Shown: one piece after another, positions 399-55,180 of the stretch | Layout: every line of letters begins with the position of its first letter | Position numbering within the stretch: position 1 is the stretch's first letter | Origin: a virus | DNA length: 64,000 nucleotides | Virus record (IMG/VR): IMGVR_UViG_3300020203_000404 | Location: 1 to 64,000 of that record | Direction: 5' to 3' (one strand) | Notes under the pieces: model-generated | What the model saw: the letters and a program-made list of their open reading frames with translations, nothing else | What the model was told of the DNA's origin: nothing | Databases searched by the model: none | Translations under genes and position numbers: made by a program

Positions 399-405
399 TT
401 TTTGC

Positions 406-433: not shown

Positions 434-439
434 TAAAAC

Positions 440-955: not shown

Positions 956-962
956 TTTTTGT

Positions 963-990
963 TTGACAGACCGCGAGAATGATGTATCAT
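963..990 (+). promoter_or_regulatory. sigma-70 promoter, leaderless, beta-helix copy 3
   Basis: TTGACA (963-968), 16-nt spacer and TATCAT (985-990), with the ATG at 997 six bases downstream. Confidence 0.8.
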
Positions 991-996
991 TAAAAC

Positions 997-1386
997 ATGA
1001 AAACCATCACGCACACGAACCCGAACGGCAAGACCGTTCAAGTCAACGTCGGCGAGAACGTGACCATCGACAAGAACGTGACCATCGGCGAGAACGTGAC
1101 CATCGGCAAGCACGCGAACATCGGCAAGCACGCGAACATCGGCGAGGATTCGTACATCGACGAGCACGTGACAATCGGCGAGCACGCGACCATCGGCGAG
1201 CACGCGACCATCGGCGAGCACGCGACCATCGGCGAATACGTGCTCATCTACGAGAACGTGACCATCGGCTGGAACGTGACCATCGACGAGAACGCGAACA
1301 TCGGCTGGAACGTGACCATCGACGAGAACGCGATCATCGACGAGAACGCGATCATCGCCCCCTGCTCAACCGTCGGCTCAAAGTGA
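997..1386 (+). CDS. hexapeptide-repeat left-handed beta-helix protein, copy 3 (18 units)
   Basis: The product has 129 residues: the shared cap and 18 hexads, which would make exactly six turns. It contains three consecutive identical HATIGE units and an alternation of GW-NVTIDE units near the C terminus, signatures of recent local unit duplication. The rare unit YVLIYE is related to YVLICE in the copies at 4727 and 6380. The end is APCSTVGSK, with a cysteine replacing the usual glycine. Function unknown. Confidence 0.88.
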   Translation: MKTITHTNPNGKTVQVNVGENVTIDKNVTIGENVTIGKHANIGKHANIGEDSYIDEHVTIGEHATIGEHATIGEHATIGEYVLIYENVTIGWNVTIDENANIGWNVTIDENAIIDENAIIAPCSTVGSK

Positions 1387-1393
1387 TTTTTGC

Positions 1394-1421
1394 TTGACGG
1401 GCCGCGAGAATGATGTATCAT
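1394..1421 (+). promoter_or_regulatory. sigma-70 promoter, leaderless, beta-helix copy 4
   Basis: TTGACG (1394-1399), 16-nt spacer, TATCAT (1416-1421), then TGAAGC and the ATG at 1428. The -35 box differs from its neighbours by one base. Confidence 0.78.
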
Positions 1422-1427
1422 TGAAGC

Positions 1428-2159
1428 ATGAAAACCATCACGCACACGAACCCGAACGGCAAGACCGTTCAAGTCAACGTCGGCGAGCACGTGACCATCG
1501 GCGAGCACGTGACCATCGGCGAGCACGCGACCATCGGCGAGGACTCGTACATCGGCTCGTACGCGACCATCGGCTCGTACGCGACCATCGGCGAGAACGT
1601 GACCATCGGCTCGTACTCGACCATCGGCGAGAACGTGACCATCGGCTCGTACTCGACCATCGGCGAGCACGCGACCATCGGCAAGAACGCGATCGTCAGC
1701 AAGAACTCGTACATCGGCCGGAGTTCGAACATCGGCGAGGACTCGTACATCGGCGAGTGCTCGTACATCGGCAGGAACGCGACCATCGGCAGGAACGCGA
1801 CCATCGGCCCGCACTCGACCATCGGCAGGAACGCGACCATCGGCGAATACGCGAACATCGTCGATGGTTCGCACGTCGGCTCGTACTCGACCATCGGCGA
1901 GAACGTGACCATCGGCGAGGACTCGTACATCGGCGAGAACGCGACCATCGGCAGGAACGCGATCATCGGCAAGAACGCGATCATCGGCAAGAACGCGATC
2001 ATCGGCAAGAACGCGATCATCGGCTCGTACTCGACCATCGGCGAGCACGTGACAATCGGCGAGAACGTGACCATCGGCTGGAACGTGACCATCGACGAGA
2101 ACGCGATCATCGACGAGAACGCGATCATCGCCCCCGGCTCAATCGTCGGCTCAAAGTGA
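1428..2159 (+). CDS. hexapeptide-repeat left-handed beta-helix protein, copy 4 (37 units, longest)
   Basis: At 243 residues this is the longest member in the window: the cap plus 37 hexads, about twelve turns. Visible tandem duplications include two HVTIGE, two YATIG and a run of four NAIIG units. The block NATIGE-YANIVD-GSHVGS-YSTIGE-NVTI recurs in copy 8 (5895), and NAIVSK-NSYIGR-SSNIG recurs in copy 7. Codons inside a given unit are nearly always the same, so the units seem to have spread by recombination rather than drift. No signal peptide or catalytic motif. Confidence 0.88.
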   Translation: MKTITHTNPNGKTVQVNVGEHVTIGEHVTIGEHATIGEDSYIGSYATIGSYATIGENVTIGSYSTIGENVTIGSYSTIGEHATIGKNAIVSKNSYIGRSSNIGEDSYIGECSYIGRNATIGRNATIGPHSTIGRNATIGEYANIVDGSHVGSYSTIGENVTIGEDSYIGENATIGRNAIIGKNAIIGKNAIIGKNAIIGSYSTIGEHVTIGENVTIGWNVTIDENAIIDENAIIAPGSIVGSK

Positions 2160-2166
2160 TTTTTGC

Positions 2167-2194
2167 TTGACAGACCGCGAGAATGATGTATCAT
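2167..2194 (+). promoter_or_regulatory. sigma-70 promoter, leaderless, beta-helix copy 5
   Basis: TTGACA (2167-2172), 16-nt spacer, TATCAT (2189-2194), TGAAAT, then ATG at 2201. Confidence 0.8.
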
Positions 2195-2200
2195 TGAAAT

Positions 2201-2629
2201 ATGAGTACCATCACACATGTGAACCCGAACGGCGAAACCGTTCAAGTCAGCGTCGGCGAGAACGTGACCATCGGCGAGAACGTGACCATCGGCAAGAACG
2301 CGATCATCGGCAAGAACGCGATCATCGGCAAGAACGTGACCATCGGCTGGAACGTGACCATCGGCTGGAACGTGACCATCGGCGAGAACGCGATCGTCAG
2401 CAAGAACGCGATCGTCAGCAAGAACGCGAACATCGGCGAGAACGCGAACATCGGCTCGTACTCGATCATCTGCCCGAACGCGATCATCGGCCAGAACGCG
2501 ATCATCGGCGAGAACTCGTACATCGGCTGGAACGTGACCATCGGCTCGTACTCGACCATCGGCGAGAACGCGATCATCGGCTATGGCGTAACCATCGACG
2601 AGGGCTCGACCATCGGCCCAGACGCCTGA
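2201..2629 (+). CDS. hexapeptide-repeat left-handed beta-helix protein, copy 5 (20 units, GPDA end)
   Basis: This 142-residue member belongs to a second cap type (MSTITHVNPNGETVQVSVGE) and ends GSTIGPDA instead of APGSIVGSK. The same two features recur together in copy 12 at 12918. It has 20 hexads, several in identical tandem pairs (GKNAII, GWNVTI, NAIVSK). The stop codon is followed not by another TTGACA promoter but by a hairpin series shared with the cassette elements further right, so this gene closes the first run of the array. Confidence 0.88.
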   Translation: MSTITHVNPNGETVQVSVGENVTIGENVTIGKNAIIGKNAIIGKNVTIGWNVTIGWNVTIGENAIVSKNAIVSKNANIGENANIGSYSIICPNAIIGQNAIIGENSYIGWNVTIGSYSTIGENAIIGYGVTIDEGSTIGPDA

Positions 2630-2637
2630 GGGGCGAC

Positions 2638-2691
2638 GGGGCGGCCCACGGGCTCGCCCCTTGCACGCTAAAAAAACGTGCATAGCTTAGG
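2638..2691 (+). repeat. partial copy of the intergenic hairpin element
   Basis: A GC hairpin with a four-base CACG loop (2638-2660) and the GCACG-CTAAAAAAA-CGTGC hairpin match the first two parts of the repeated element seen in full at 9396-9554. The large GC hairpin and the promoter are missing here, so this is a truncated copy. Confidence 0.65.
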
Positions 2692-2781
2692 GCTCTGGTC
2701 TTCGCCTAGATCCAAGGGACGCGATCCTGTGCCCCCTCTATTCTTTTTCAAGATTCTACTAGCCTTTCCTTGAAAATGAGG

Positions 2782-2807
2782 TAATCTAATGGTGTCCACA
2801 GTGGACA
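2782..2807 (+). promoter_or_regulatory. promoter -10 with a perfect palindromic operator
   Basis: A -10-like TAATCT (2782-2787) is followed at once by a perfect inverted repeat, TGTCCAC-A-GTGGACA (2793-2807). The palindrome covers the expected transcription start of the ribbon-helix-helix gene at 2837. That position and the two-fold symmetry suit an operator bound by the product (inference). Confidence 0.55.
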
Positions 2808-2836
2808 TCCGAAACAGCAACAGAAAGCACAACATC

Positions 2837-3028
2837 ATGTCGAACAGTACCGAAGTCAAGCGTGGCCGTGGTCGTCCCAAGTCTTTCCCGAATGCCGAGA
2901 CGCGAATGGCGGGTTTCAACCTGCCGGTCGCTACGCTAGAGAAGATCGTCGCGGCGGCTGCCAAGCGTGGCACCAACCAGAACACCCTTCTGGATCGTGC
3001 GGTGAATGCTTACCTCCGCAAGAGCTGA
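2837..3028 (+). CDS. ribbon-helix-helix DNA-binding protein with AT-hook-like N terminus
   Basis: The 63-residue product has an RGRGRP segment resembling an AT-hook (about residues 9-14), then a short beta strand (TRMAGFNLP) and two helices ending in a leucine/alanine-rich second helix. This is the layout of the Arc/CopG/MetJ ribbon-helix-helix fold, which binds operators as a dimer with the strand in the major groove. The ATG at 2837 was preferred over one at 2789, because the latter overlaps the promoter and operator and its extra residues lack family character. The palindrome in its own promoter suggests autorepression. A strong terminator follows. Confidence 0.65.
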   Translation: MSNSTEVKRGRGRPKSFPNAETRMAGFNLPVATLEKIVAAAAKRGTNQNTLLDRAVNAYLRKS

Positions 3029-3057
3029 GTCGCGGACGGGTCCGTGAGTACTGGAAA

Positions 3058-3092
3058 AGGCTAGGGAGAAATCCCTGGCCTCTTCCTTTTTC
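3058..3092 (+). terminator. rho-independent terminator after the RHH gene
   Basis: A 10-bp stem (AGGCTAGGGA paired with TCCCTGGCCT, one G-U) closes a GAAA tetraloop and is followed by a T-rich tract (CTTCCTTTTTC). Confidence 0.85.
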
Positions 3093-3109
3093 TGGGGTAC
3101 TATTCTCAC

Positions 3110-3463
3110 ATGCAAGTCAAAGTCTACTTCAATCTACACAAGCGAACGTGGTCTATTCTGCACAAGACTCCGAAGGGGTGGCGGCTGTGGGGTCACTCGC
3201 CGCGTGTGACGCTGGCAGGCGTGACGTGGAAGGTGAGCGAAGCGGGCCGTCAGCGTGTTCTTCGGGAGCGTCGCAAGAACGTCCACGCCTTCGGCATCGG
3301 TATCCTGCTCGACAATGAGAACGCTCCCGAAGGGGAGTTTCTGCCGGTGAAGTACAATCCCTACGAATCGGGTTTCTTTTGCGTGAACGGTACGCCTGTA
3401 CACGCAAGCCGGTTTGCAGTGTTCACGCCCGAAAGACGTGTTTTTGCTTGCCTAAATCCCTGA
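3110..3463 (+). CDS. conserved phage-type protein of unknown function (RVLRERRKNVHAF motif)
   Basis: A basic 117-residue protein with the central motif GRQRVLRERRKNVHAF (about residues 47-62) and a later YNPY motif. From memory, short phage and bacterial proteins with a similar VYFNLHK start and the same NVHAF motif exist, but their function is not known to me. A -10 box TACTAT (3098-3103) ends six bases before the ATG, so the message is predicted leaderless, while the -35 match (TGGCCT) is poor. The terminator just upstream isolates it from the preceding gene. Confidence 0.65.
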   Translation: MQVKVYFNLHKRTWSILHKTPKGWRLWGHSPRVTLAGVTWKVSEAGRQRVLRERRKNVHAFGIGILLDNENAPEGEFLPVKYNPYESGFFCVNGTPVHASRFAVFTPERRVFACLNP

Positions 3464-3481
3464 GGAAGATATACTGAGATA

Positions 3482-3778
3482 ATGAAGTACAGAATCGTCA
3501 AGCACGACAAGCTCAACTGGGCCATTCAAGAGTACCAAGAAGGTGGGGGGGAAATCTCTCGCGGTCCCTACGCCGGTCAGGCGATGCAAGAGAAGTGGAA
3601 GCCCGCCAAGGCGTTCTACCCTTCGCTGCAACGTGCAGCCCTGAACTTGCTCGACATGGCAGCGGGTGATACACTGGAAGCGGGCGAGGCTCAGGGCATC
3701 TTGGATGCCCTCAGGATCGCGGAAACGAGAGTCTTGGAAACGTTACGGGCTATGACACCCGAAGAGGTCGCACGATGA
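3482..3778 (+). CDS. small conserved phage protein, unknown function
   Basis: The 98-residue protein begins MKYRIVKHDKLNWAIQEYQEGG and contains a YPSLQRAALNLLDMAAGD helix. It resembles small phage proteins of the DUF5405 kind from memory, but this is tentative. Its promoter lies inside the 3' end of the preceding gene: TTGCCT (3448-3453), 16 nt, TATACT (3470-3475), then six bases to the ATG. Its stop overlaps the start of the next gene by four bases, so the two are coupled. Confidence 0.6.
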   Translation: MKYRIVKHDKLNWAIQEYQEGGGEISRGPYAGQAMQEKWKPAKAFYPSLQRAALNLLDMAAGDTLEAGEAQGILDALRIAETRVLETLRAMTPEEVAR

Positions 3779-4026
3779 GGTATCGCATCAATTGGACGGA
3801 ATCGGTAGGCTATTCTATCTACGTTCAGGCTGACTCGAAAGAAGAGGCGTTGACGAAGTTCCACGAGGGTGGTTACGAGGCCGACATGTCGCGTGCGTTC
3901 GAGAGTTTCTGCGAAATGCAGGAAGACGCGGAGGCCGAGGAATGCGACGGCTGCAACGGCACCGGCACCACGGGCGGCGGCCCTCCCGGTTCGGCCAGTC
4001 CGTGTGACTGCTGCAACGGTGCGTAA
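3775..4026 (+). CDS. DpnD/PcfM-like N-domain fused to a CxxCxGxG zinc-binding tail
   Basis: Residues 1-30 (MRYRINWTESVGYSIYVQAD with a following KEEAL) look like the short beta-alpha DpnD/PcfM-type domain. The C terminus has CDGCNGTGTTGG and then CDCC, a CxxCxGxG-style knuckle as in DnaJ zinc fingers, so zinc binding is likely. The gene overlaps the previous one by four bases (ATGA). A diverged copy of this gene, including the end of the upstream gene, was reused in the chimera at 13429. Function unknown. Confidence 0.55.
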   Translation: MRYRINWTESVGYSIYVQADSKEEALTKFHEGGYEADMSRAFESFCEMQEDAEAEECDGCNGTGTTGGGPPGSASPCDCCNGA

Positions 4027-4071
4027 CATTCTCTTGACTGCGTGCCATTGTCGCTATATGATAATAGCACT

Positions 4072-4164
4072 ATGGCACGCAAGAAGCACGATCTGCCCAA
4101 GGCTGTTCAGGACATAGCCGCAAAACCCGTTTCAAGGACCGCAAGAGGCAACAACAATGAATGA
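4072..4164 (+). CDS. 30-residue basic peptide
   Basis: A short frame (MARKKHDLPKAVQDIA...) starts nine bases after a TATGAT -10 box, with TTGACT (about 4034) 17 nt upstream of it, so it is the first start codon on a near-leaderless transcript. Its end overlaps the next gene by eight bases. It may be a true small protein or a leader that couples translation to the gene at 4157. Confidence 0.4.
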   Translation: MARKKHDLPKAVQDIAAKPVSRTARGNNNE

Positions 4165-4357
4165 GCGTGTTATCAATTTGCAATTCGACTCTGTCTGCGT
4201 CATCACAACTGAGCAATACGACGCTATCAAGCGTGATCTTGAAATACGTATAATGGTGGACAGTGCTCAGCCGGGGGACCATATCTTGGCACGGCTGTTA
4301 ATCAACGCGGAATATCGCTACCATGAAATCAAGATGCTAGAGAATGTCGTTGACTGA
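4157..4357 (+). CDS. small hypothetical protein
   Basis: A 66-residue acidic protein of mixed alpha/beta character with no motif that I recognise. It follows the 30-residue peptide with an 8-base overlap and has no clear Shine-Dalgarno site, so it is probably translated by coupling. The -35 box of the next gene's promoter overlaps its stop codon. Confidence 0.5.
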   Translation: MNERVINLQFDSVCVITTEQYDAIKRDLEIRIMVDSAQPGDHILARLLINAEYRYHEIKMLENVVD

Positions 4358-4378
4358 TAGCATTTTATGCGATAGAAT
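4350..4378 (+). promoter_or_regulatory. sigma-70 promoter, leaderless
   Basis: TTGACT (4350-4355), 17-nt spacer and TAGAAT (4373-4378), with the ATG at 4384 five bases later. An almost identical copy lies at 4617-4645. Confidence 0.75.
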
Positions 4379-4383
4379 AAAGC

Positions 4384-4620
4384 ATGAAGAACACAATCGA
4401 AAACCAGTGGCGATGGATGGACAGGCTCAAAGCGGGCACGAAGATCGTCACCAAGGGAGATACTTGGATTCTTCCCAAGTGGAAGAATAATCACCTTGGC
4501 ATCAAGTACGCCGAAAGCGTCTTCATCAACGTCAGCACGGGAGACCTGAAACACTATTCTAGGCTCACAGACTTGGAAAAGCCGCCCCGCATTGAGGGCC
4601 ACAGTTCGGTTTTCATTTGA
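4384..4620 (+). CDS. small hypothetical protein
   Basis: A 78-residue protein with two tryptophans close to the N terminus (QWRWMD) and a lysine-rich middle. No domain is recognised. It stands alone between two nearly identical promoters and is predicted to be read from a leaderless mRNA. The duplicated promoter downstream suggests that this gene and the broken one at 4654 arrived by a cassette duplication. Confidence 0.5.
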   Translation: MKNTIENQWRWMDRLKAGTKIVTKGDTWILPKWKNNHLGIKYAESVFINVSTGDLKHYSRLTDLEKPPRIEGHSSVFI

Positions 4621-4645
4621 CTGATAGCATGTTATGCGATAGAAT
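4617..4645 (+). promoter_or_regulatory. duplicate sigma-70 promoter before a broken gene
   Basis: TTGACT (4617-4622), 17-nt spacer and TAGAAT (4640-4645), matching the promoter at 4350 except for a few bases. It drives the gene start at 4654 and probably the beta-helix gene at 4727. Confidence 0.65.
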
Positions 4646-4653
4646 AAAACATC

Positions 4654-4726
4654 ATGAACACACAAACGACCGAAGTCTACAAGGATTGCTTGGGTTGCAA
4701 GTACTGTAATGATGTATCATCGAAAT
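4654..4726 (+). pseudogene. 5' fragment of a cysteine-containing gene fused to a beta-helix promoter
   Basis: An ATG follows the promoter at 4617 and encodes MNTQTTEVYKDCLGCKYC (C-x2-C-x2-C), then the DNA switches to the conserved sequence that normally surrounds the -10 box of beta-helix genes (TAATGATGTATCAT). The frame stays open but reads the beta-helix repeats out of frame as a basic Arg/Asp/His repeat, so the original gene is truncated. The recombination removed the usual TTGACA of the downstream gene. Confidence 0.6.
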
Positions 4727-5206
4727 ATGAGTACCATCACGCACACGAACCCGAACGGCAAGACCGTTCAAGTCAACGTCGGCGAGAACGTGACCATCGG
4801 CGAATACGTGCTCATCTGCGAGAACGCGACCATCGGCTCGCACTCGACCATCGGCTCGCACTCGACCATCGGCAGGAACGCGACCATCGGCTGGAACGCA
4901 ACCATCGGCGAGGACTCGTACATCGGCTCATACTCGATCATCGGCGAGAACGCAACCATCGGCTCGTACTCGTACATCGGCAAGTACGCGATCATCGGCA
5001 AGAACGCGACCATCGGCGAGAACGCGACCATCGGCGAGAACGCGACCATCGGCAAGAACGTGACCATCGGCTCGTACTCGACCGTCGGCAAGAACGCGAT
5101 CATCGGCGAGAACGCGAACATCGGCGAGAACTCGTACATCGTCCGGGACGCGATCGTCGGCCAGGACGCGACCATCGCCCACGGCTCAATCGTCGGCCTA
5201 AAGTGA
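4727..5206 (+). CDS. hexapeptide-repeat left-handed beta-helix protein, copy 6 (23 units)
   Basis: The start MSTITHTNPNGK at 4727 fits the family cap; the earlier in-frame ATG at 4709 adds residues found in no paralogue. It has 159 residues and 23 hexads. Its last units (NSYIVR-DAIVGQ-DATIA) are shared with copy 8, and YVLICE with copy 9. It keeps the -10 box (TATCAT) but the upstream fusion leaves no good -35 box at the right distance, so it may depend on the TTGACT promoter at 4617. It ends GSIVGLK. Confidence 0.85.
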   Translation: MSTITHTNPNGKTVQVNVGENVTIGEYVLICENATIGSHSTIGSHSTIGRNATIGWNATIGEDSYIGSYSIIGENATIGSYSYIGKYAIIGKNATIGENATIGENATIGKNVTIGSYSTVGKNAIIGENANIGENSYIVRDAIVGQDATIAHGSIVGLK

Positions 5207-5213
5207 TTTTTGC

Positions 5214-5241
5214 TTGACGAGCCGCGAGAATAATGTATAAT
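5214..5241 (+). promoter_or_regulatory. sigma-70 promoter, leaderless, beta-helix copy 7
   Basis: TTGACG (5214-5219), 16-nt spacer and a consensus TATAAT (5236-5241), six bases before the ATG at 5248. Confidence 0.8.
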
Positions 5242-5247
5242 TGAAGC

Positions 5248-5853
5248 ATGAAAACCATCACGCACACGAACCCGAACGGCAAGACCGTTCAAGTCAGCGT
5301 CGGCGAGAACGTGACCATCGGCAAGAACGCGAACATCAGCTGGAACGTGACCATCGGCTCGTACTCGACCATCGGCAAGAACGCGAACATCAGCTGGAAC
5401 GTGACCATCGGCTCGCACTCGACCATCGGCGAGCACGCGACCATCGGCAAGAACGCGATCGTCAGCAAGAACTCGTACATCGGCCGGAGTTCGAACATCG
5501 GTGACGGCTCGTACATCGGCAAGGGCTCGAACATCGGCAAGAACGTGACCATCTGCAAGAACGTGACCATCGTCTCGCACTCGACCATCGGCAAGAACGT
5601 GACCATCGGCTCGTACTCGACTATCGGCGAGCACGCGAACATCAGCGAGAACGCGATCATCGACTATGGCGTAACCATCGGCTCGTACGTGACCATCGAC
5701 TTGTACTCGTACATCGGCTCGCACTCGACCATCAGCTGGAACGTGACCATCAGCTGGAACGTGACCATCGGCGAGAACGTGACCATCGGCGAGAACGTGA
5801 CCATCGACCGGGACGCGACCATCGCCCCCGGCTCAATCGTCGGCTCAAAGTGA
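5248..5853 (+). CDS. hexapeptide-repeat left-handed beta-helix protein, copy 7 (30 units)
   Basis: A 201-residue member with exactly 30 hexads, equal to ten turns. It begins with a three-unit block (NVTIGK/NANISW/NVTIGS plus YSTIGK) that is repeated at once, so higher-order repeats of several units exist. Serine often replaces the glycine after isoleucine (ISW). It shares blocks with copies 2 and 4. Tryptophan units (WN) and tyrosine units (SY) would put aromatic side chains at the helix corners. Function unknown. Confidence 0.88.
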   Translation: MKTITHTNPNGKTVQVSVGENVTIGKNANISWNVTIGSYSTIGKNANISWNVTIGSHSTIGEHATIGKNAIVSKNSYIGRSSNIGDGSYIGKGSNIGKNVTICKNVTIVSHSTIGKNVTIGSYSTIGEHANISENAIIDYGVTIGSYVTIDLYSYIGSHSTISWNVTISWNVTIGENVTIGENVTIDRDATIAPGSIVGSK

Positions 5854-5860
5854 TTTTTGC

Positions 5861-5888
5861 TTGACAGACCGCGAGAATGATGTATCAT
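5861..5888 (+). promoter_or_regulatory. sigma-70 promoter, leaderless, beta-helix copy 8
   Basis: TTGACA (5861-5866), 16-nt spacer and TATCAT (5883-5888), six bases before the ATG at 5895. Confidence 0.8.
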
Positions 5889-5894
5889 TAAAAC

Positions 5895-6338
5895 ATGAAA
5901 ACCATCACGCACACGAACCCGAACGGCAAGACCGTTCAAGTCAGCGTCGGCGAGAACGTGACCATCGGCGAGAACGCGATCATCGGCGAGAACGTGACCA
6001 TCGGCGAGGACTCGTACATCGGCGAGAACGCGATCATCGGCCCGCACTCGACCATCGGCTCGCACTTGACTATCGGCAGGAACGCGACCATCGGCGAATA
6101 CGCGAACATCGTCGATGGTTCGCACGTCGGCTCGTACTCGACCATCGGCGAGAACGTGACCATCTACGAGAACGCGATCATCCGCGAGCACGCGACCATC
6201 GGCAAGAACGCGATCATCCGCGAGCACGCGAGCATCGGCAAGAACGCGACCATCGGCAAGAACTCGTACATCGTCCGGGACGCGATCGTCGGCCAGGACG
6301 CGACCATCGCCCCCGGCTCAATCGTCTGCTCAAAGTGA
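5895..6338 (+). CDS. hexapeptide-repeat left-handed beta-helix protein, copy 8 (21 units)
   Basis: A 147-residue member with 21 hexads (seven turns). Its centre reproduces a block of copy 4 (NATIGE-YANIVD-GSHVGS-YSTIGE) and its end a block of copy 6 (NSYIVR-DAIVGQ-DATIA), so it reads as a mosaic of two neighbours. Units with arginine at the second variable position (NAIIRE, twice) are special to this copy. It ends APGSIVCSK. Confidence 0.88.
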   Translation: MKTITHTNPNGKTVQVSVGENVTIGENAIIGENVTIGEDSYIGENAIIGPHSTIGSHLTIGRNATIGEYANIVDGSHVGSYSTIGENVTIYENAIIREHATIGKNAIIREHASIGKNATIGKNSYIVRDAIVGQDATIAPGSIVCSK

Positions 6339-6345
6339 TTTTTGC

Positions 6346-6373
6346 TTGACAGACCGCGAGAATAATGTATAAT
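6346..6373 (+). promoter_or_regulatory. sigma-70 promoter, leaderless, beta-helix copy 9
   Basis: TTGACA (6346-6351), 16-nt spacer and TATAAT (6368-6373), six bases before the ATG at 6380. Confidence 0.82.
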
Positions 6374-6379
6374 TGAAGC

Positions 6380-6715
6380 ATGAAAACAATCAAATACACG
6401 AACCCGAACGGCAAGACCGTTCTGGTCAGCGTCGGCAAGAACGCGATCATCGGCAAGAACGCGATCATCGGCGAGAACGTGACCATCGGCGAATACGTGC
6501 TCATCTGCGAGAACGTGACCATCGGCTCGAACGCAACCATCGGCTATGGCGTAACCATCTGCGAGAACGCGACCATCGCCGACGGCTCAACCGTCGGCGA
6601 GCACGCGACCATCGGCGAGCACGCGACCATCGGTAAGGACTCGTACATCGGCGAGCACGTGACCATCGGCGTCGGTTCGAACATCGGCGAGGGCTCGACC
6701 ATCGGCTTCGAGTGA
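6380..6715 (+). CDS. hexapeptide-repeat left-handed beta-helix protein, copy 9 (15 units)
   Basis: A 111-residue member with the slightly diverged cap MKTIKYTNPNGKTVLVSVGK and 15 hexads. It is the last of the contiguous array and has its own C terminus (GSTIGFE). The VLVSVG version of the cap is shared with copies 10 and 11, which sit among the cassette genes at 8.9 and 12.7 kb, so this copy may link the two groups. Confidence 0.88.
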   Translation: MKTIKYTNPNGKTVLVSVGKNAIIGKNAIIGENVTIGEYVLICENVTIGSNATIGYGVTICENATIADGSTVGEHATIGEHATIGKDSYIGEHVTIGVGSNIGEGSTIGFE

Positions 6716-6819: not shown

Positions 6820-6950
6820 CTATTTCAAGCGTACTAGAAACGCATTTAAAATAATTCAGCGGTTCTGTCAAAACACTTACAGTACAAAGCTCGGCGATCT
6901 CTGGGATTTTCTTACACTTACTTACTGTCGAGCTAAAAATAACCGTGGCC

Positions 6951-7290: not shown

Positions 7291-7923
7291 ATGAATAACG
7301 CGACAACGTCCAGCCTAATGAGTATCGTAGGGGGGCTTTCCAAGCCCTCCAAGATGCCGGGATTCGGCTACGGGCTTTCGGCTCTCGATTGCAAGGTTGG
7401 CCGCCTACTCCGCAAGGTAGAAGGTTCAACGTGCGGATCGTGCTACGCTTTGAAAGGTAGGTATTCCTTTCCGAATGTGAAAAAAGCACACGCCCGTCGT
7501 CTGGAAAGCCTTTCCAATCCGCATTGGGAGGCTGCCATGACGGAACTTATTTCCCGCAAGGCGAAAAAGGTTCCGTTCTTCCGCTGGCACGATTCTGGCG
7601 ATCTCCAGAGCGTGGAACACCTTTCCATGCTCGTTAGGATCGCGAAAAACCTTCCGCAAGTGTCATTCTGGATTCCAACACGCGAAAACGTGATGGTGAA
7701 ACAATTTCTGAATCAGGGTAACACGTTCCCGGACAATTTTACCGTTCGCGTGTCGGCTCCTATGATCGGTCGCACCCCGGAAAAGATTGCCGGAACGGTT
7801 GGCTCCAGCGTGGAAGATTCTTCCGCTTTTCAATGTCCCTCTCCCAAGCAAGGCAATTCTTGCCAGGAATGTCGTTCCTGCTGGAATGGAAAGGTCGAAA
7901 ACGTTTCCTACTCGAAACACTGA
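7291..7923 (+). CDS. phage Gp88-like protein
   Basis: A 210-residue protein with an N-terminal CGSCYALKGRY motif (cysteines near residues 48 and 51), a conserved WHDSGDLQS stretch, an FWIPTRE motif and a C-terminal cysteine group (CPSPKQGNSCQECRSC). These match what I know of the phage 'gene product 88' family found in mycobacteriophages and many other phages. Its role is unknown, although the paired cysteines suggest metal or cluster binding. TATCAT ends five bases upstream of the ATG, so a leaderless start is again likely. Confidence 0.75.
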   Translation: MNNATTSSLMSIVGGLSKPSKMPGFGYGLSALDCKVGRLLRKVEGSTCGSCYALKGRYSFPNVKKAHARRLESLSNPHWEAAMTELISRKAKKVPFFRWHDSGDLQSVEHLSMLVRIAKNLPQVSFWIPTRENVMVKQFLNQGNTFPDNFTVRVSAPMIGRTPEKIAGTVGSSVEDSSAFQCPSPKQGNSCQECRSCWNGKVENVSYSKH

Positions 7924-8268: not shown

Positions 8269-8648
8269 ATATCCCGACCGGTATTGAAGTCTCCCGCACG
8301 GAAGCCGCAACGCTCATTCGCAAGGCTCGTGGCATGGTTTCCGTGGTAGTTCGCAAGCGTTCGGACGGTTCGCTCCGTCGGATGAACGGTTTCGCCGCGT
8401 GCAATCTCAGCGACGCCGAACGGGCAGCAAACACGAACGGCACGGGAGCCGCGTTCGATCCGCTCGCCCATGATCTCATCCCATTCTACGAAATGGTTTC
8501 CCAGACGGTCAACGGTTTCCGCGTCGTGAACGGTAAGACGGTCGCCAGCAAGATCCGCCGCACGATCGGAAAGCAATTCCGGAACGTTGCGATCGAGGGT
8601 ATCCTGTCAATCCGCACGGCTGGAAAAACCTACACGGTCGCGGGCTGA
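8265..8648 (+). CDS. small phage protein, SH3-like beta-barrel candidate
   Basis: A 127-residue protein: an N-terminal helix (SRTEAATLIRKARG), a strand pair with KRSDGSLRRMNG, then a FYEMVSQTVNGFRVVNG segment. This order resembles small phage proteins that I recall as SH3-fold-like hypotheticals, but the assignment is weak. It follows the coupled leader peptide and ends just before an 11-bp hairpin that begins the next intergenic element. Confidence 0.55.
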   Translation: MNIPTGIEVSRTEAATLIRKARGMVSVVVRKRSDGSLRRMNGFAACNLSDAERAANTNGTGAAFDPLAHDLIPFYEMVSQTVNGFRVVNGKTVASKIRRTIGKQFRNVAIEGILSIRTAGKTYTVAG

Positions 8649-8656
8649 AAAGACTT

Positions 8657-8863
8657 CCGAGCGGCGACTAGGATTCGCCGCTCGGATACGCTAGCCTTCT
8701 CTGTACGGGCCTGAAACGGCCCGTCCCTGCATGCTAGACGCGAGCCTAAACCCTAAGCTACGCGGGCGGGCGGAGAATCCGCCCTAAGCCCGCGTGTGGC
8801 TTCACAAGGCAGGCTCGACTTTTTGTTTTTTCCTCTTGCTTTTTCGCACCGCTAGGGTATCCT
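8657..8863 (+). repeat. intergenic promoter/stem-loop element, copy b
   Basis: It starts with a perfect 11-bp hairpin (CCGAGCGGCGA/TCGCCGCTCGG, 8657-8685), then a GAAA-loop hairpin, the two-storey GC hairpin (8761-8794) and the promoter TTGCTT (8836-8841), 16 nt, TATCCT (8858-8863). Apart from its head it is nearly identical to copy a. Confidence 0.8.
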
Positions 8864-8868
8864 AAGAC

Positions 8869-9387
8869 ATGAATACCATCACGCACACGAACCCGAACGG
8901 CAAGACCGTTCTGGTCAGCGTCGGCGAGAACGTGACCGTCTGCAAGAACGTGACCATCGGCTCGTACTCGACCATCGGCTCGTACTCGACCATCGGCGAG
9001 AACGTGACCATCGGCCAGAACGCGATCATCGGCGAGAACGCGACCATCGGCTGGAACGTGACCATCGCCAAGAACCCGTACATCGGCAAGAACGCGAACA
9101 TCGGTGACGGCTCGACCATCGGCAAGAACGTGACCATCTCCAAGAACGTGACCATCGGCTCGTACTCGTACATCGGCAAGAACGCGACCATCGGCGAGAA
9201 CGCGAGCATCGGCAAGAACGCGAGCATCGGCAAGAACGCGACCATCGACCGGGACGCGACCATCGACCGGAACACGACCATCGGCAAGAACGCGAACATC
9301 GGCGAGAACGCGACCATCGACCGGGACACGACCATCGGCGAGAACGCGACCATCGACCGGGACACGACCATCGGCCCAGACGCCTGA
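8869..9387 (+). CDS. hexapeptide-repeat left-handed beta-helix protein, copy 10 (25 units)
   Basis: A 172-residue member located among unrelated cassette genes and driven by the cassette-type promoter (TATCCT, five bases, ATG) rather than the TTGACA promoter of the array. The cap is MNTITHTNPNGKTVLVSVGE; 25 hexads follow, many with aspartate-arginine corners (IDRDTTI, IDRDATI), and the end is GPDA. Three near-identical NATIDR-DTTIG pairs mark recent duplication at its 3' end. Confidence 0.87.
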   Translation: MNTITHTNPNGKTVLVSVGENVTVCKNVTIGSYSTIGSYSTIGENVTIGQNAIIGENATIGWNVTIAKNPYIGKNANIGDGSTIGKNVTISKNVTIGSYSYIGKNATIGENASIGKNASIGKNATIDRDATIDRNTTIGKNANIGENATIDRDTTIGENATIDRDTTIGPDA

Positions 9388-11605: not shown

Positions 11606-11613
11606 GGGGTGAC

Positions 11614-11773
11614 GGGGCGGGCCTACGGGCTCGCCCCTTGCACGCTAAAAAAACGTGCCTAGCTTAGCTACGCGGGCGGGCGAAGAATCCGCCCTAGGCA
11701 CGCGTGGGGCTCCACGGGGCAAGCTCGACTTTTTTGCTTTTCCTCTTGCTTTTTCGAGCCTATAGGGTATCCT
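11614..11773 (+). repeat. intergenic promoter/stem-loop element, copy e
   Basis: Hairpin with a C(TACG)G loop, A-rich-loop hairpin (11640-11658), a GC hairpin with two disruptive changes (11671-11704) and the promoter TTGCTT (11746-11751), 16 nt, TATCCT (11768-11773). Confidence 0.8.
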
Positions 11774-12190: not shown

Positions 12191-12547
12191 ATGTATTTCA
12201 AGGAAATCGTAGGACATGTATTGTTAGAAATCTCGTTGAATGACAGAGAAATTATCCTCAAGACCGACAAGGCAACGGCTCGTCTTGAGGCGGTTGGTGA
12301 CTGCTGTTCGCAAGGCTGGATTGACGACCTTGCCGTTTCGGGCACGCTGCCATCCAAGATTGTCGGTATTGAGGACATGTGCCAGTCTTTCAACCTTGCC
12401 GATGACGATAAGAGGTTTGACGAAGGTGACATTGTTGTGGCATACGGTGCCAAGATCGTGACCGAAAATGGTCCGATCACCTTCAATGTCTGGAACAATA
12501 GCAATGGCTATTATGGTTCTGTGTTGTGTTTCTCGGCATCGTACTGA
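12191..12547 (+). CDS. DUF7448-like protein
   Basis: A 118-residue protein with the order strand-'VLLEISLNDREIILKTDKATARL'-'GDCCSQGWIDDLAVSG', which resembles a small widespread family with a DCCE/DCCS motif that I know as DUF7448. Its function is unknown. The start is set by a strong AAGGAG (12181-12186); the predicted leader is only about ten bases, so this is the one cassette gene with both a short leader and a Shine-Dalgarno site. Confidence 0.6.
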   Translation: MYFKEIVGHVLLEISLNDREIILKTDKATARLEAVGDCCSQGWIDDLAVSGTLPSKIVGIEDMCQSFNLADDDKRFDEGDIVVAYGAKIVTENGPITFNVWNNSNGYYGSVLCFSASY

Positions 12548-12555
12548 GGGGCGAC

Positions 12556-12715
12556 GGGGCGGGCCTGCGGGCTCGCCTCTAGCACGCTAAAAAAACGTGC
12601 CTAGCTTAGCTACGCGGGCGGGCGGAGAATCCGCCCTAGGCACGCGTGGGGCTCTACAGGGCAGGCTCGACTTTTTGTTTTTTCCTCTTGCTTTTTCGCA
12701 CCGCTAGGGTATCCT
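12556..12715 (+). repeat. intergenic promoter/stem-loop element, copy g
   Basis: Hairpin with a C(TGCG)G loop, A-rich-loop hairpin (12582-12600), GC hairpin with one outer mismatch (12613-12646) and the promoter TTGCTT (12688-12693), 16 nt, TATCCT (12710-12715). Confidence 0.8.
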
Positions 12716-12720: not shown

Positions 12721-12876
12721 ATGAATACCATCACGCACACGAACCCGAACGGCAAGACCGTTCTGGTCAGCGTCGGCGAGAACGTGACCATCGGCTCGTA
12801 CTCGACCATCGGCGAGAACGTGACCATCGGCAAGAACGTGACCATCACCCCCGGCTCAATCGTCGGCTCAAAGTGA
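12721..12876 (+). CDS. hexapeptide-repeat beta-helix protein, copy 11 (5 units, minimal)
   Basis: A complete but very short member: 51 residues with the VLVSVGE cap, only five hexads and the usual SIVGSK end. Fewer than two turns could form, so it may be a deletion product that is no longer functional alone. It uses the cassette-type promoter, while its 3' flank is that of the array genes. It shows that recombination within the repeats contracts the genes as well as extending them. Confidence 0.75.
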   Translation: MNTITHTNPNGKTVLVSVGENVTIGSYSTIGENVTIGKNVTITPGSIVGSK

Positions 12877-12883
12877 TTTTTGC

Positions 12884-12911
12884 TTGACAGACCGCGAGAA
12901 TGATGTATCAT
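12884..12911 (+). promoter_or_regulatory. sigma-70 promoter, leaderless, beta-helix copy 12
   Basis: TTGACA (12884-12889), 16-nt spacer, TATCAT (12906-12911), six bases, ATG at 12918. This is the array-type promoter transplanted into the cassette region. Confidence 0.8.
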
Positions 12912-12917
12912 TGAAAT

Positions 12918-13256
12918 ATGAGTACCATCACACATGTGAACCCGGACGGAAAGACCGTTCTGGTCAACGTCGGCTCGAACGTAACCATCGGCTATGGCGT
13001 AACCATCTGCGAGAACGCGATCATCGGCTGGAACGTGACCATCGGCGAATACGCGAACATCGGCGAGAACTCGTACATCGGCTGGAACGCGACCATCGGC
13101 GAGAACGTGACCATCGGCTCGTGCTCGACTATCGGCTCGTACTCGACCATCGGCCAGAACGCGATCATCGGCGAGAACTCGTACATCGGCTGGAACGCGA
13201 CCATCGGCGAGAACGTGACCATCGACCGGGACACGACCATCGGCCCAGACGCTTGA
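12918..13256 (+). CDS. hexapeptide-repeat left-handed beta-helix protein, copy 12 (15 units, GPDA end)
   Basis: A 112-residue member with the cap MSTITHVNPDGKTVLVNVGS and the GPDA ending seen in copies 5 and 10. Fifteen hexads include the block GQNAII-GENSYI-GWN also found in copies 2 and 5. The cap begins with ACACATGTGAACCC as in copy 5, so 5 and 12 are the closest pair by both ends. Two cysteines occur at unit corners. Confidence 0.87.
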   Translation: MSTITHVNPDGKTVLVNVGSNVTIGYGVTICENAIIGWNVTIGEYANIGENSYIGWNATIGENVTIGSCSTIGSYSTIGQNAIIGENSYIGWNATIGENVTIDRDTTIGPDA

Positions 13257-13264
13257 GGGGCGAC

Positions 13265-13366
13265 GGGGCGGGCCTGCGGGCTCGCCTCTAGCACGCTAAA
13301 AAAACGTGCCTAGCTTAGCTACGCGGGCGGGCGGAGAATCCGCCCTAGGCCCGCGTGGGGCCTCAC
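13265..13366 (+). repeat. intergenic hairpin element, copy h (no promoter half)
   Basis: Hairpin with a C(TGCG)G loop, A-rich-loop hairpin (13291-13309) and the GC hairpin (13322-13355). The element then stops and a different promoter takes over at 13396. Confidence 0.75.
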
Positions 13367-13395
13367 AGGCGATTGTAACGCTAGTGTAAAACGGT

Positions 13396-13423
13396 TTGAC
13401 TCTAGGCTTTTTCGTGGTATACT
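13396..13423 (+). promoter_or_regulatory. sigma-70 promoter, leaderless
   Basis: TTGACT (13396-13401), 16-nt spacer and TATACT (13418-13423), five bases before the ATG at 13429. Confidence 0.75.
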
Positions 13424-13428
13424 CAATC

Positions 13429-13725
13429 ATGGAAAAGACGATCGAAGACACCCGAAGAGGTAGCACGATGAGGTATCGCATCAATTGGACGGAATCGGTA
13501 GGCTATTGTGCCTACGTTCAGGCTGACTCGAAAGAAGAGGCGTTGACGAAGTTCCACGAGGGTGGTTACGATGCCTCGCTCGATGGTTTCTGCGAAATGC
13601 ATGACGACGCGGAGGCCGAGGAAGATCCTGATAAGGAATGCGACGGCTGCAACGGCACCGGCACCACTGGCGGCGGCCCTCCCGGTTCGGCCCTCCTGGT
13701 GGAAAACGACAAGCCTGCCGAATGA
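13429..13725 (+). CDS. chimeric DpnD/PcfM-like protein, prematurely ended
   Basis: The 98-residue product joins three sources. A new leaderless start (MEKTIEDTRRGST) contains the end of the gene at 3482 read in another frame. A near copy of the 3775 gene follows (MRYRINWTESVGY...CDGCNGTGTTGG). A segment LLVENDKPAE then matches the middle of the gene at 15254. The second cysteine pair of the 3775 protein is lost. Where the 15254 gene has TGG (Trp), this copy has TGA, and the homologous tail continues in frame after it. Confidence 0.6.
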   Translation: MEKTIEDTRRGSTMRYRINWTESVGYCAYVQADSKEEALTKFHEGGYDASLDGFCEMHDDAEAEEDPDKECDGCNGTGTTGGGPPGSALLVENDKPAE

Positions 13726-13809
13726 GCGGACATGCGTCACGAATGCGAAACGTGGCTTGGAAGAATATTCGACATCGAGCTTTGCGACCTATTCGAGCGT
13801 AGCCCATAG
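13726..13809 (+). pseudogene. in-frame remnant after a Trp-to-stop change
   Basis: Directly after the TGA the same frame encodes 27 codons (ADMRHECETWLG...CDLFERSP) clearly related to the C terminus of the protein at 15254 (VDMRHECETWLG...ELLKRSLW). It is either a pseudogene tail or, less likely, reached by readthrough. Confidence 0.6.
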
Positions 13810-13819
13810 CGGGCTGCCC

Positions 13820-13858
13820 AAGGGCCGGAAACGGCCCTTCTGGGCCTTCCTTTTTTTT
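13820..13858 (+). terminator. rho-independent terminator
   Basis: The same AAGGGCCG/CGGCCCTT GAAA-loop hairpin (13820-13839) and T-run as at 12017. Confidence 0.88.
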
Positions 13859-13860
13859 GT

Positions 13861-13977
13861 GCCTAGCTTAGCTACGCGGGCGGGCGGAGAATCCGCCCTA
13901 GGCCCGCGTGGGGCTCCACGGGGCAAGCTCGACTTTTTTGCTTTTCCTCTTGCTTTTTCTTTTTCAAGCTATATAGT
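13861..13977 (+). repeat. intergenic promoter/stem-loop element, copy i
   Basis: The GC hairpin (13875-13908) is followed by the promoter TTGCTT (13950-13955), 16-nt spacer and TATAGT (13972-13977). The spacer carries CTTTTTCAAG. Confidence 0.78.
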
Positions 13978-13982
13978 AAAGC

Positions 13983-14408
13983 ATGAAATCACTACTCGAA
14001 AAAGCCATCCGCGTAGCATGCGAATCGCATGCGGGCCAAGTGGATAAGGGTGGGTTACCCTATATCCTACATCCACTTGCGGTTATGTTGAGTCTTCCAT
14101 CGTCGGACGTGAAAGGTCGCATCGTCGCCGTACTCCATGATGTTGTGGAGGACACAAGTACTACACTTGAAAAGCTCGCTGAGTGGCTGCCCTTCGATCT
14201 TCTTGAAGGCGTCGATGCCATGTCAAAGCGTCAAGGCGAGACTAACCGTGCCTATTGGATTCGCTGTAAGGCCAACGAAATCGCGGCACGGGTCAAGGTC
14301 GCTGACATGCTACATAATTCGAGCCCCGAGAGGCTAGCCTGTCTGAGCTACGCGGAGCAAGAATATCTTTCCAAGAAATATGGAGAGGCTCTTGTCTTTT
14401 TCAAGTAG
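13983..14408 (+). CDS. HD-domain hydrolase, MESH1/SpoT-hydrolase-like
   Basis: A 141-residue HD-superfamily protein. HAGQVDKGGLPYILHP (H30), the HD pair in AVLHDVVEDT (H52-D53, with E56-D57) and KVADMLHN (D108, N112) match in order and spacing the metal-binding and catalytic elements of the SpoT hydrolase domain and of small alarmone hydrolases such as MESH1. The expected reaction is removal of the 3'-pyrophosphate from (p)ppGpp, which would let the phage blunt the stringent response (inference). It is shorter than typical MESH1 (about 180 residues). It has a leaderless start, five bases after TATAGT. Confidence 0.7.
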   Translation: MKSLLEKAIRVACESHAGQVDKGGLPYILHPLAVMLSLPSSDVKGRIVAVLHDVVEDTSTTLEKLAEWLPFDLLEGVDAMSKRQGETNRAYWIRCKANEIAARVKVADMLHNSSPERLACLSYAEQEYLSKKYGEALVFFK

Positions 14409-14811
14409 TAAAACTGAACATGGGGGGCGGGCTACGCTCGCCCGAAAACGTTGCCCCTGCTATCTAACAACCTAAATGCGTGAGCCTAAAAGACCTACGC
14501 AAAAGCATGAAATAGCGTTCGCGTGAAATTGCTGGGAGTCTAGCCTAAAACACATACTGTGAGCTAAAATAACCGTGGCCGCCAAAACGGCAGCCGGAAA
14601 AATTTTCCCTGCCAAAACGGCAGCCGGAAAGATTTTCCCGCCGTGTAAGATCTATGTAAAATCCGAGTTTTTACACAATCGTTACGAAACGATTTCCGTT
14701 TCGAACCCGTAACGGTATATCTTTCCGTGTTGGAAAAGTATACTCGTTTGGCTATCCTTTCCAGTATACCCTACCCTTGGCCGATATCAATGTGAAAGCC
14801 TTTCCTATTGT
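14409..14811. other. 403-bp gene-free region with repeats and palindromes
   Basis: No gene is seen. It contains the second copy of the palindromic tandem repeats (14581-14640), a nested inverted repeat (GTTACG/CGTAAC around AAACG/CGTTT, about 14682-14716), and GTATAC elements near 14738-14776. It becomes AT-rich toward the right. It could be a regulatory hub or replication-related site; nothing here decides which. Confidence 0.5.
14581..14640. repeat. two tandem 30-bp palindromic repeats, second locus
   Basis: Units GCCAAAACGGCAGCCGG...TTTTCC at 14581-14610 and 14611-14640 match those at 6951-7008, again preceded by GAGCTAAAA...CCGTGGCC. Confidence 0.7.
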
Positions 14812-15253: not shown

Positions 15254-15508
15254 ATGCAAACGATGATAGTCTGGAACGGCCTGCAAGTTAGAGCCGAAGT
15301 CGAAGTGGAAAAAGTTTCCTACTGGTTCGAGGCGGTGACGTGCCTGACCGACACGGCGTACGAAGTTGACGATGCGGAAGAATTTTCCGCCTTTCTCGTG
15401 CAGCATGACAAGCCTGCTGAATGGGTCGATATGCGTCACGAATGCGAAACGTGGCTAGGAACGTTCGAGGGCCAGCTATTCGAGCTACTCAAGCGTAGCC
15501 TATGGTAA
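15254..15508 (+). CDS. hypothetical protein, parent of the 13429 chimera tail
   Basis: An acidic 84-residue protein whose C-terminal half (HDKPAEWVDMRHECETWLG) is duplicated, with a stop codon in place of tryptophan, in the chimeric gene at 13429. Not recognised otherwise. It is directly downstream of the gene at 15056, and a repeated leader follows it. Confidence 0.5.
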   Translation: MQTMIVWNGLQVRAEVEVEKVSYWFEAVTCLTDTAYEVDDAEEFSAFLVQHDKPAEWVDMRHECETWLGTFEGQLFELLKRSLW

Positions 15509-18100: not shown

Positions 18101-18609
18101 GTGCTTAGCTTCCTCTGAATGTTTTGCAACTGTCGAATCAATGCTTGTACTTTATGCTTACTTTGTCCAGTCACAATAAGAAACCAACGAGTTGAGGATT
18201 CGCGTTCCTCGATTTTCCAAACGCCAAGGAAAAAAGGGATCCCATATTTGACGATTGTGCCAGTAAAGGGGTCACTCAAAATAACGTCCATGTCGTCATA
18301 GCCGGTCACTATCATATAATGGCCGATGCCGTCTTTCATGACGACATGGACGATTGGCAGTTGGTGTTTCGCCAACGCTTTTTTAAGCTTATTGAAATTC
18401 CCATGATCACTTTGTTTAAAATTAAACCCAAGGATCTTCAAGCCATGCTCAAAGTCACTCGTGCCGTTCTCGGTAGTACCAAGAACAACAGCCAATTCAC
18501 GATCGGTAAAATCCAAGCCAAACTGATAGTATAGAGCCGTCCTAAGGCTCGCTGGGCCGCAACTCCAGCGGGTATGTTGCTTGAATGGTTTTACGTCATG
18601 AATGGTCAT
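18097..18609 (-). CDS. C39-like cysteine peptidase
   Basis: A 170-residue protein with WSCGPASLRTAL (nucleophile C17), GHYMIVTGYDD (H97) and SDP (D113), the Cys-His-Asp set in the order of the papain-like C39 fold. Bacteriocin-processing C39 domains cut after double glycine and are fused to transporters; free-standing ones have other roles, including wall or peptide cleavage. Its four-base overlap with the release-factor gene and with the membrane protein indicates joint expression. An endolysin-like role is possible but unproven. Confidence 0.7.
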   Translation of the reverse strand: MTIHDVKPFKQHTRWSCGPASLRTALYYQFGLDFTDRELAVVLGTTENGTSDFEHGLKILGFNFKQSDHGNFNKLKKALAKHQLPIVHVVMKDGIGHYMIVTGYDDMDVILSDPFTGTIVKYGIPFFLGVWKIEERESSTRWFLIVTGQSKHKVQALIRQLQNIQRKLST

Positions 18610-19317
18610 TTCAGCAATTCAAACCTACCCCTACCAATTACATCTTCAACCCTATTAGTCTTAATACCTGTTCTGTGATCCACGGCTCGCTGGTCGATAA
18701 AGTTGTAAGTTCTAATCTTTTCTGTGCGACCACCGTTGCCAACCTGTTGTCGCTTAGCTGCTGCGGCCTTAGCGTTTACCCCCGCCACTTTTTCTTTTTC
18801 AAGTCTTGCTGTGAGAATCTTGAGTGCGAGCCGCTTATTGGAGTGCTGCTCCCTCCCATCAATAGTTACGCTAATACCAGTCGGATCGTGTCGGGCAACA
18901 ACACAAGATTCTGTTTTATTGCGATGTTGACCACCAGGACCGCTTCCCCTCTTAGTCATTATAGTCACTTCGCTCATATTGAGCTTAGTGACTAAAGCTT
19001 CCGAAGCCAGTTGCGTCACAGCGACCGTTACGATTGAGGTCTGTCGCCTCCCCCGTTTTTCCGTAGGTGGGACTCGCTGTACGCAATGTTTGCCAGCTTC
19101 GGCAGCAAAGAGACTGGCTGCGTTCGTTCCGCTAAAAACCAGCGATATCTTCCCCAAGCTCCAATCTTCGTTTTCAAGCTTGCAACCATTGCTGTTTGCA
19201 TATTTAACATAGGCCAATCCAAGATTCTCGCAGAACAACTTAGAGTCTGTTCCGCCCTCACCGGCTTGGATCTCAAAGACAGACGGCGTGCGATCCGTCA
19301 ACGTATGAAGTTTTCAT
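18606..19317 (-). CDS. phage peptide-chain release factor, probable +1 programmed frameshift
   Basis: The main frame encodes a class-I release factor without the N-terminal helical domain. It has the EIQAGEGG start of domain 2, VQRVPPTEKRGRRQTS whose PxT tripeptide is the RF1-type stop-codon reader (UAA/UAG), and GSGPGGQHRNKT whose GGQ loop triggers peptide release. In that frame the only start is a TTG (19301) directly behind an in-frame TGA. In the other frame an ATG at 19317 opens 14 codons (MKTSYVDGSHAVCL) ending in CTT-TGA (19278-19273), the same sequence at which bacterial RF2 mRNAs shift +1. A shift there continues exactly into EIQAGEGG and gives 236 residues. No Shine-Dalgarno-like enhancer before CTT is evident. 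Confidence 0.7.
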
Positions 19318-22356: not shown

Positions 22357-22463
22357 ACGCCTCCCGTTGAGAGCAGGAACTATGTTAGGTTAGCACGGGG
22401 CGGCTTAAAAAGAGGGAATATCAGTTAGCCCATGTATTAACTAGTGATGCCGCGACAAGACAT
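22357..22463 (+). repeat. element B, diverged direct repeat of element A's first half
   Basis: GCCTCCCGTTGAGAG, TTAGCACGGGG, GGCTTAAAAAGAGGGAATATCAGTTAGCC and TGATGCCGCGACAA parallel 22103-22228 in order and spacing, with many substitutions. Confidence 0.6.
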
Positions 22464-22478
22464 TGGTTTTACAAGAAA

Positions 22479-55178: not shown

Positions 55179-55180
55179 GC

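What the first reader, a model, noticed from the sequence alone, without database searches (positions are those of the whole stretch)
13429..13809. Three-part chimeric gene with a Trp-to-TGA stop
The gene joins the end of the 3482 gene (shifted frame), the 3775 gene and the second half of the 15254 gene, the only clear mosaic at protein level. At the codon TGG of the parent it has TGA, yet the frame stays open and similar for 27 more codons. Either decay has just begun or TGA is sometimes read through.
Basis: seen in the sequence. Interest (0 to 1): 0.5.

Follow-up and report, generated by a model that had tools for sequence, protein, structure and literature searches.

The report
Patchwork phage gene with dead tail
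A small phage gene was stitched together from pieces of other genes and probably now ends at an ordinary stop codon, leaving an unread remnant behind; it sits in a region where related phages seem to swap small genes between shared spacer and promoter pieces.

Summary
Frame 13429-13809 is open except for TGA at 13723-13725, then 27 codons to TAG. Its DNA joins the end of gene 3482 (20-40 bases), most of gene 3775 and the end of a 15254-like gene. It is not the only protein-level mosaic: in related phages the same first domain stands alone or is fused to another module.

Read-through is not supported. TGA is the commonest stop among 68 window genes (39). Ten tRNAs were seen, none with a UCA anticodon. 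Changes after the TGA fit no constraint (small sample). The first domain is complete before the TGA.

New context: promoters here lie 5-7 bases before start codons, 20 times in 16 kb against 0.13 in shuffles, and likewise in four related phages. This predicts leaderless mRNAs and supports the start at 13429. Repeated spacers flank the gene; at one matching site a relative has a different gene behind the same spacer. Best reading: a product of cassette and domain shuffling whose tail is a relic.

The parts
13257..13369 (+). upstream spacer copy, shared by several cassettes
   Evidence: 92% identical to 11606-11718; 13254-13369 is 97% identical to 12545-12660
13396..13423 (+). promoter TTGACT-16-TATACT, ends 5 bases before ATG 13429
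   Evidence: 10 of 12 consensus matches, TG before the second hexamer; 3 promoter-like sites in 13200-14450 against 0.6 in shuffles; geometry as in the other cassettes
13429..13467 (+). 13-codon N-terminal extension if translation starts at 13429; partly the 3' end of gene 3482 in another frame, holding a Shine-Dalgarno-like GAAGAGG before ATG 13468
13468..13611 (+). complete RINW domain (name used here); model strand-strand-helix-strand
   Evidence: homology to 3775 and to genes in G005, G006, G007; fold of 3775, low confidence
13636..13692 (+). first half of the two-cysteine-pair module (ECDGCNGTGTTGGGPPGSA); second pair lost at the junction
   Evidence: 98% DNA identity to 3938-3996; whole module in 3775 and in G004
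13687..13722 (+). 15254-like segment before the stop
13723..13725 (+). TGA where 15254 has TGG and its relative in G002 has W
13726..13809 (+). 27-codon tail remnant, ending in TAG
   Evidence: corresponds to the C-terminal helix of a low-confidence model of 15254
13812..13856 (+). intrinsic terminator
   Evidence: RNA fold of 13807-13862 -26.8 kcal/mol, z -2.05, 9 of 200 shuffles as good, then T8; terminator-like scan hits
13859..13959 (+). downstream spacer copy leading to the promoter of gene 13983
   Evidence: 92-98% identical to the copies at 9436, 9857, 11655 and 12597
3482..3778 (+). gene whose 3' end resembles the extension
   Evidence: relatives in G002 and G006
3775..4026 (+). paralogue of the body: RINW domain plus both cysteine pairs
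15254..15508 (+). paralogue of the tail

Best explanation
The gene is a product of cassette and domain shuffling in the small-gene region of a tailed phage. A body copied from, or overwritten by, gene 3775 was joined in frame to the end of an older 15254-type gene, between two copies of a repeated spacer. Transcription likely starts at or next to ATG 13429, giving a leaderless mRNA; a second in-frame start with a Shine-Dalgarno-like sequence lies at 13468. Translation ends at the TGA, giving a 98- or 85-residue protein with a complete first domain, half of the cysteine module and 12 residues of 15254-like tail. The 27 codons after the TGA are a relic. Shown: the pieces, the frame, the promoter geometry, the spacers, the stop usage. 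Inferred: leaderless start, expression, order of events, function of the first domain alone.
For: Pieces and in-frame junction. The first domain alone is a 56-residue frame in G006, so the part before the TGA can stand by itself. TGA ends 39 of 68 hand-picked window genes, the chimera included. Ten tRNAs seen by Rfam or ARAGORN, none with a UCA anticodon. F against 15254: before the TGA pS 0.71, pN 0.11; after it pS 0.28, pN 0.19; the part after fits no constraint (p 0.76), the part before does not (p 0.007). W stands at this place in 15254 and in G002. Promoter-to-ATG distance of 5-7 bases 20 times in 16 kb against 0.13 in shuffles. Same spacer, different gene behind it in G002. Promoter and terminator present.
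Against: The direct contrast between the parts before and after the TGA is not significant (Fisher p 0.09-0.12, fractional counts rounded), and only one close homologue of the tail was found. By codon position alone the contrast is weaker still (p 0.41). F against 3775 shows 9 nonsynonymous and 1 synonymous codon changes: no sign of purifying selection on the body, although the indels within it keep the frame. No RNA or protein data. No second copy of this gene was found in viral contigs (very near records may be left out there) or in the seven related records, so its spread and age are unknown. The 20 promoters are not independent: by eye 15 belong to two repeated families.
Confidence: 0.6

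Rival explanations
1. The whole gene is a non-functional by-product of recombination, not only its tail.
For: Half the cysteine module is lost, the tail is cut, and the body shows more nonsynonymous than synonymous change against 3775. A nearby joint at 4617-4727 gives an out-of-frame fusion, so failed joints occur.
Against: Frame kept through the junctions and the indels of the body; complete first domain; intact-looking promoter and terminator.
Confidence: 0.27
2. The TGA is sometimes read through, making a 126-residue fusion.
For: The frame stays open for 27 codons and ends just before a terminator; D/E, E/Q and F/L changes in the tail are mild.
Against: TGA is the commonest stop; no UCA-anticodon tRNA among ten; neutral-looking changes after it; last W codon also a stop. 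A long open stretch after a stop is not rare: 11 of 68 genes, the chimera included, have 27 or more open codons, at least one of them because the next gene lies in the same frame.
Confidence: 0.04
3. The TGA is a sequencing or assembly error.
For: A single-base difference in one virus record.
Against: No homopolymer at the site; the tail looks relaxed and its end also differs.
Confidence: 0.05
4. The tail is made as a separate 25-residue peptide by re-initiation at ATG 13732, six bases after the TGA.
For: An in-frame ATG follows the stop closely; the tail corresponds to one predicted helix (low confidence).
Against: No clear Shine-Dalgarno sequence by eye; neutral-looking changes.
Confidence: 0.04

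Closest known systems
Modular mosaicism of tailed phages, with exchange at repeats (Cluster O mycobacteriophages, PMC4351075, passages seen)
   Same: Small genes gained or lost between short repeats; joints at repeated intergenic sequence.
   Different: Here a repeated spacer leads into a leaderless-type promoter, and joints also fall inside genes at module borders.
Leaderless phage transcripts (phage phiYS40 of Thermus, PMC3594737, passages seen; promoters PL1, PR2 and PL2 of phage Corndog, PMC4351075, passages)
   Same: Transcript start at, or predicted at, the start codon.
   Different: Here the geometry recurs at 65 places in regions of this phage and four relatives (some chance ones included); it is predicted only from sequence.
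Two-cysteine-pair modules of the DnaJ CxxCxGxG type (type recalled; weak hits below cut-off to DnaJ and Anti-TRAP models for the G004 relative)
   Same: Gene 3775 and the G004 gene have two CxxC pairs.
   Different: This gene keeps only the first pair.

Membership tests
Programmed or tolerated UGA read-through gene | coding constraint continues past the stop | tested here: not met
   changes after the TGA fit no constraint (p 0.76), small sample
Programmed or tolerated UGA read-through gene | a phage UGA-reading tRNA, or rare use of UGA as stop | tested here: not met
   ten tRNAs, none with UCA; TGA in 39 of 68 genes; host tRNAs unknown
Programmed or tolerated UGA read-through gene | extended protein detected | not testable with these tools
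   no proteomics
Leaderless mRNA gene | -10 element 5-7 bases before the start codon | tested here: met
Leaderless mRNA gene | transcript 5' end at the start codon | not testable with these tools
   no RNA data
DnaJ-type two-cysteine-pair zinc module | two CxxC pairs | tested here: not met
   only CDGC kept; 3775 has CDGC and CDCC
Chimeric gene made by recombination of paralogues | segments matching different genes, joined in one frame | tested here: met
Pseudogene | no selection on, and no product from, the whole gene | tested here: inconclusive
   tail relaxed, body undecided

The most novel reading that the evidence does not exclude
This phage group keeps a gene nursery: repeated spacers that lead into a leaderless-type promoter let any captured fragment that begins near ATG be expressed at once, without a ribosome-binding site, so domain fragments are shuffled into new small genes, perhaps against the host. 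The chimeric gene is one such trial product caught in the act.
Probability: 0.22. Interest if true: 0.68.

Novelty: new variant of a known kind. Interest (0 to 1): 0.38.

Why it matters
How phages make new small genes is poorly known. Here the parts, the joints, the promoter and the spacer are visible in one record, and related phages show the same modules in other combinations. If the promoters do give leaderless mRNAs, a fragment needs no ribosome-binding site to become a gene, which would make gene birth by shuffling easy and testable. The TGA itself is ordinary.

Tried and rejected
Read-through by a phage suppressor tRNA: 8 Rfam tRNA matches in the whole record; ARAGORN found none in the window and 9 in the two stretches taken, which miss one Rfam match; that one (record 136876-136949) has the loop TTTGCAT, read by eye as anticodon TGC, and is confirmed as a tRNA. 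Together ten tRNAs, none with UCA; one has a predicted four-base anticodon. ARAGORN was not run on the rest of the record.

Relatives in named phages: DNA at 'distant' setting gave no match; in protein mode 3775, the G004 gene and the G007 gene gave none, and the terminase gave 30 records, all under 60% identity. 3775 in plasmids: none. RINW alignment in genome contigs: 162 pattern matches, none confirmed. Close relatives in viral contigs by single protein: none confirmed; by exact 24-base pattern: none. A 99%-terminase relative (G001) does not cover the place: its contig begins at window 15854. Pfam, PHROGs and NCBIfam gave no confident family for the chimera, 3775 or 15254. Structure models were poor (mean pLDDT 59.3 and 55.6), so no fold search was run. 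The idea that the 3482 piece is only a leader carrying a Shine-Dalgarno sequence was weakened by the promoter geometry but not excluded; both starts are in frame. Six paper searches listed papers on leaderless phage transcripts; no title or abstract start listed there describes this arrangement, and only passages of four papers were opened.

Rows dropped: in the all-against-all protein comparison only ATG-started frames of 45 residues or more were used, and frames rich in hexapeptide-type repeats were dropped before the count (401 kept); some antisense repeats remained. For G004 only the 2.7 kb locus L013 was included. The 68 genes for the stop counts were picked by hand from frames.

Full report
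What was checked. The window is bases 1-64000 of a 151,810-base virus record. The frame 13429-13809 reads 98 residues, TGA, 27 residues, TAG. Names used here: F is the finding, A is gene 3775, B is gene 15254; 'RINW' and 'YTGL' are names given here to two recurring segments.

The pieces. F matches A over 13438-13575 (93%) and 13634-13692 (98%), with in-frame indels between. Upstream of ATG 13468 about 20 bases match the end of gene 3482 with one difference, and a weaker match runs to 13427 with a 2-base gap. From 13686 F matches B, 76% over 122 columns. Both parents share TTC-GCC at the joint, and both frames agree. From 13812 the DNA matches the terminator and spacer behind gene 11779 (93%). 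A search of the whole record with 13230-14000 found 14 places, itself included, all of them in the first 16 kb.

Ages differ. F and A are close (pS 0.05, pN 0.07), F and B far apart (before the TGA pS 0.71). F keeps SALL, as G002 does, where B has SAFL. So the tail probably did not come recently from B itself. The simplest history, which is inference, is an older B-type gene whose front was replaced by A.

The TGA. W stands at this place in B and in its G002 relative, so the stop is the derived state. TGA ends 39 of 68 hand-picked window genes, F included; TAA 19, TAG 10. The Rfam tRNA model found 8 tRNAs in the record. ARAGORN found none in the window and 9 in the two stretches that hold the Rfam matches; with one Rfam match that ARAGORN missed there are ten, none with a UCA anticodon. 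Of the 26 aligned codons after the TGA, changes fit no constraint (4.5 synonymous, 11.5 nonsynonymous; p 0.76), while the 12 before it show constraint (6 and 3; p 0.007). The contrast between the two is not significant by itself (Fisher p 0.09-0.12; by codon position p 0.41). The last W of B is a stop in F as well. Together these favour an ordinary stop and an unread relic.

The first domain survives. The model of A, of low confidence, has strand-strand-helix-strand in residues 2-48 and nothing after (mean pLDDT 55.6). In G006 the domain is a frame of 56 residues by itself. In G005 and G007 it is fused to a YTGL segment, and in G004 a YTGL segment is fused to the two-cysteine-pair module of A (G004 residues 45-73 are 76% identical to A 55-83; G004 2-45 are 45% identical to 72-115 of the G005 protein). 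So F is one of several combinations of the same modules, and 'the only clear mosaic' does not hold for the group. The first domain was found in 3 of 7 related records and the cysteine module in one more; a relative of B in 1 of 7. A profile search of viral contigs added one more record with the first domain.

Start and promoter. TTGACT-16-TATACT ends 5 bases before ATG 13429. The same geometry is general here. In the first 16 kb, 20 ATGs that open frames of 50 codons or more lie 5-7 bases behind a TTGnnn-N15..18-TAnnnT element, against a mean of 0.13 (maximum 1) in 30 dinucleotide shuffles; the other 38 distances from 0 to 40 together hold 16. The other 48 kb have 4 against 0.7 (maximum 3). 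The regions taken from four relatives have 8 (G002), 14 (G005), 14 (G007) and 9 (G006), each against 0.17 or less, with 7, 13, 21 and 20 at the other distances. The copies within the window are not independent, since by eye 15 of the 20 belong to two repeated promoter families, and at least one of the 20 (ATG 10877) and one of the G002 sites are probably chance. Standard spacing (recalled) puts the transcript start at or next to the A of these ATGs, so leaderless mRNAs are predicted. This supports 13429 as a start. ATG 13468, with GAAGAGG 7 bases before it, remains possible; in G002 the B relative likewise has a leaderless-type ATG 24 bases before an in-frame ATG. Not all genes follow the rule: gene 12191 has a 16-to-20-base leader with AAGGAG.

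Spacers. A 39-base spacer core occurs 7 times in the window with at most one mismatch (none with two to six), all between 9436 and 13897; F lies between two copies. In the 12.9 kb taken from G002 the spacer stands once in full, with partial matches at 6469-6507 and 6833-6878. There it lies between the relative of gene 8265 and the B relative; in the window the matching place has the spacer followed by a hexapeptide-repeat gene at 8869, and gene plus spacer align in one piece (8316-8875 with 5040-5602, 72%). The same slot thus holds different genes in two phages whose terminases are 90% identical. This is the best direct support for exchange at the spacer; it is one site.

What is known. Leaderless transcripts are known in Thermus phage phiYS40 (PMC3594737, passages) and predicted for a few promoters of mycobacteriophage Corndog (PMC4351075, passages); the AR9 paper says phage transcripts are often leaderless (PMC5312081, passages). 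Gain and loss of small genes between repeats is described for Cluster O phages. The listings of six paper searches showed no array of spacer-plus-leaderless-promoter cassettes; that is not proof of absence.

Verdict. The TGA is most likely an ordinary stop. The wider arrangement is the more interesting part, and its mechanism is inferred, not shown.

Noticed in passing
window 63-6715, 8869-9387, 12721-13256: Twelve copies of a hexapeptide-repeat gene (18-base repeats) with variable repeat number, 9 of them with the same TTGACA/G promoter and 2 with the TTGCTT one; no such repeats by a motif count in the regions taken from four related phages.
   Followed up: partly
window 4617-4727: A second joint: a copy of the promoter and start of gene 4384 runs into the front of a hexapeptide gene, giving an out-of-frame fusion.
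   Followed up: partly
window 18609-19301 (-): Release-factor-like gene without the first domain, closest to RF1 models but below their cut-off, with RVPPTEKRGRRQTS where RF1 has its PxT motif (motif recalled).
   Followed up: partly
L023:5473-5550 (-), record 136772-136849: tRNA gene with a predicted four-base anticodon (gtat); also an Rfam tRNA match.
   Followed up: partly
window 13983-14408: HD-domain hydrolase gene (Pfam HD_4, PHROG 990) right behind the chimera, with its own leaderless-type promoter.
   Followed up: no
window 55177-55430 and 22390-22464: A stretch of relative G001 (7383-7639) matches the window at 55177-55430 on the other strand, and its part 7413-7490 also matches 22390-22464.
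   Followed up: no
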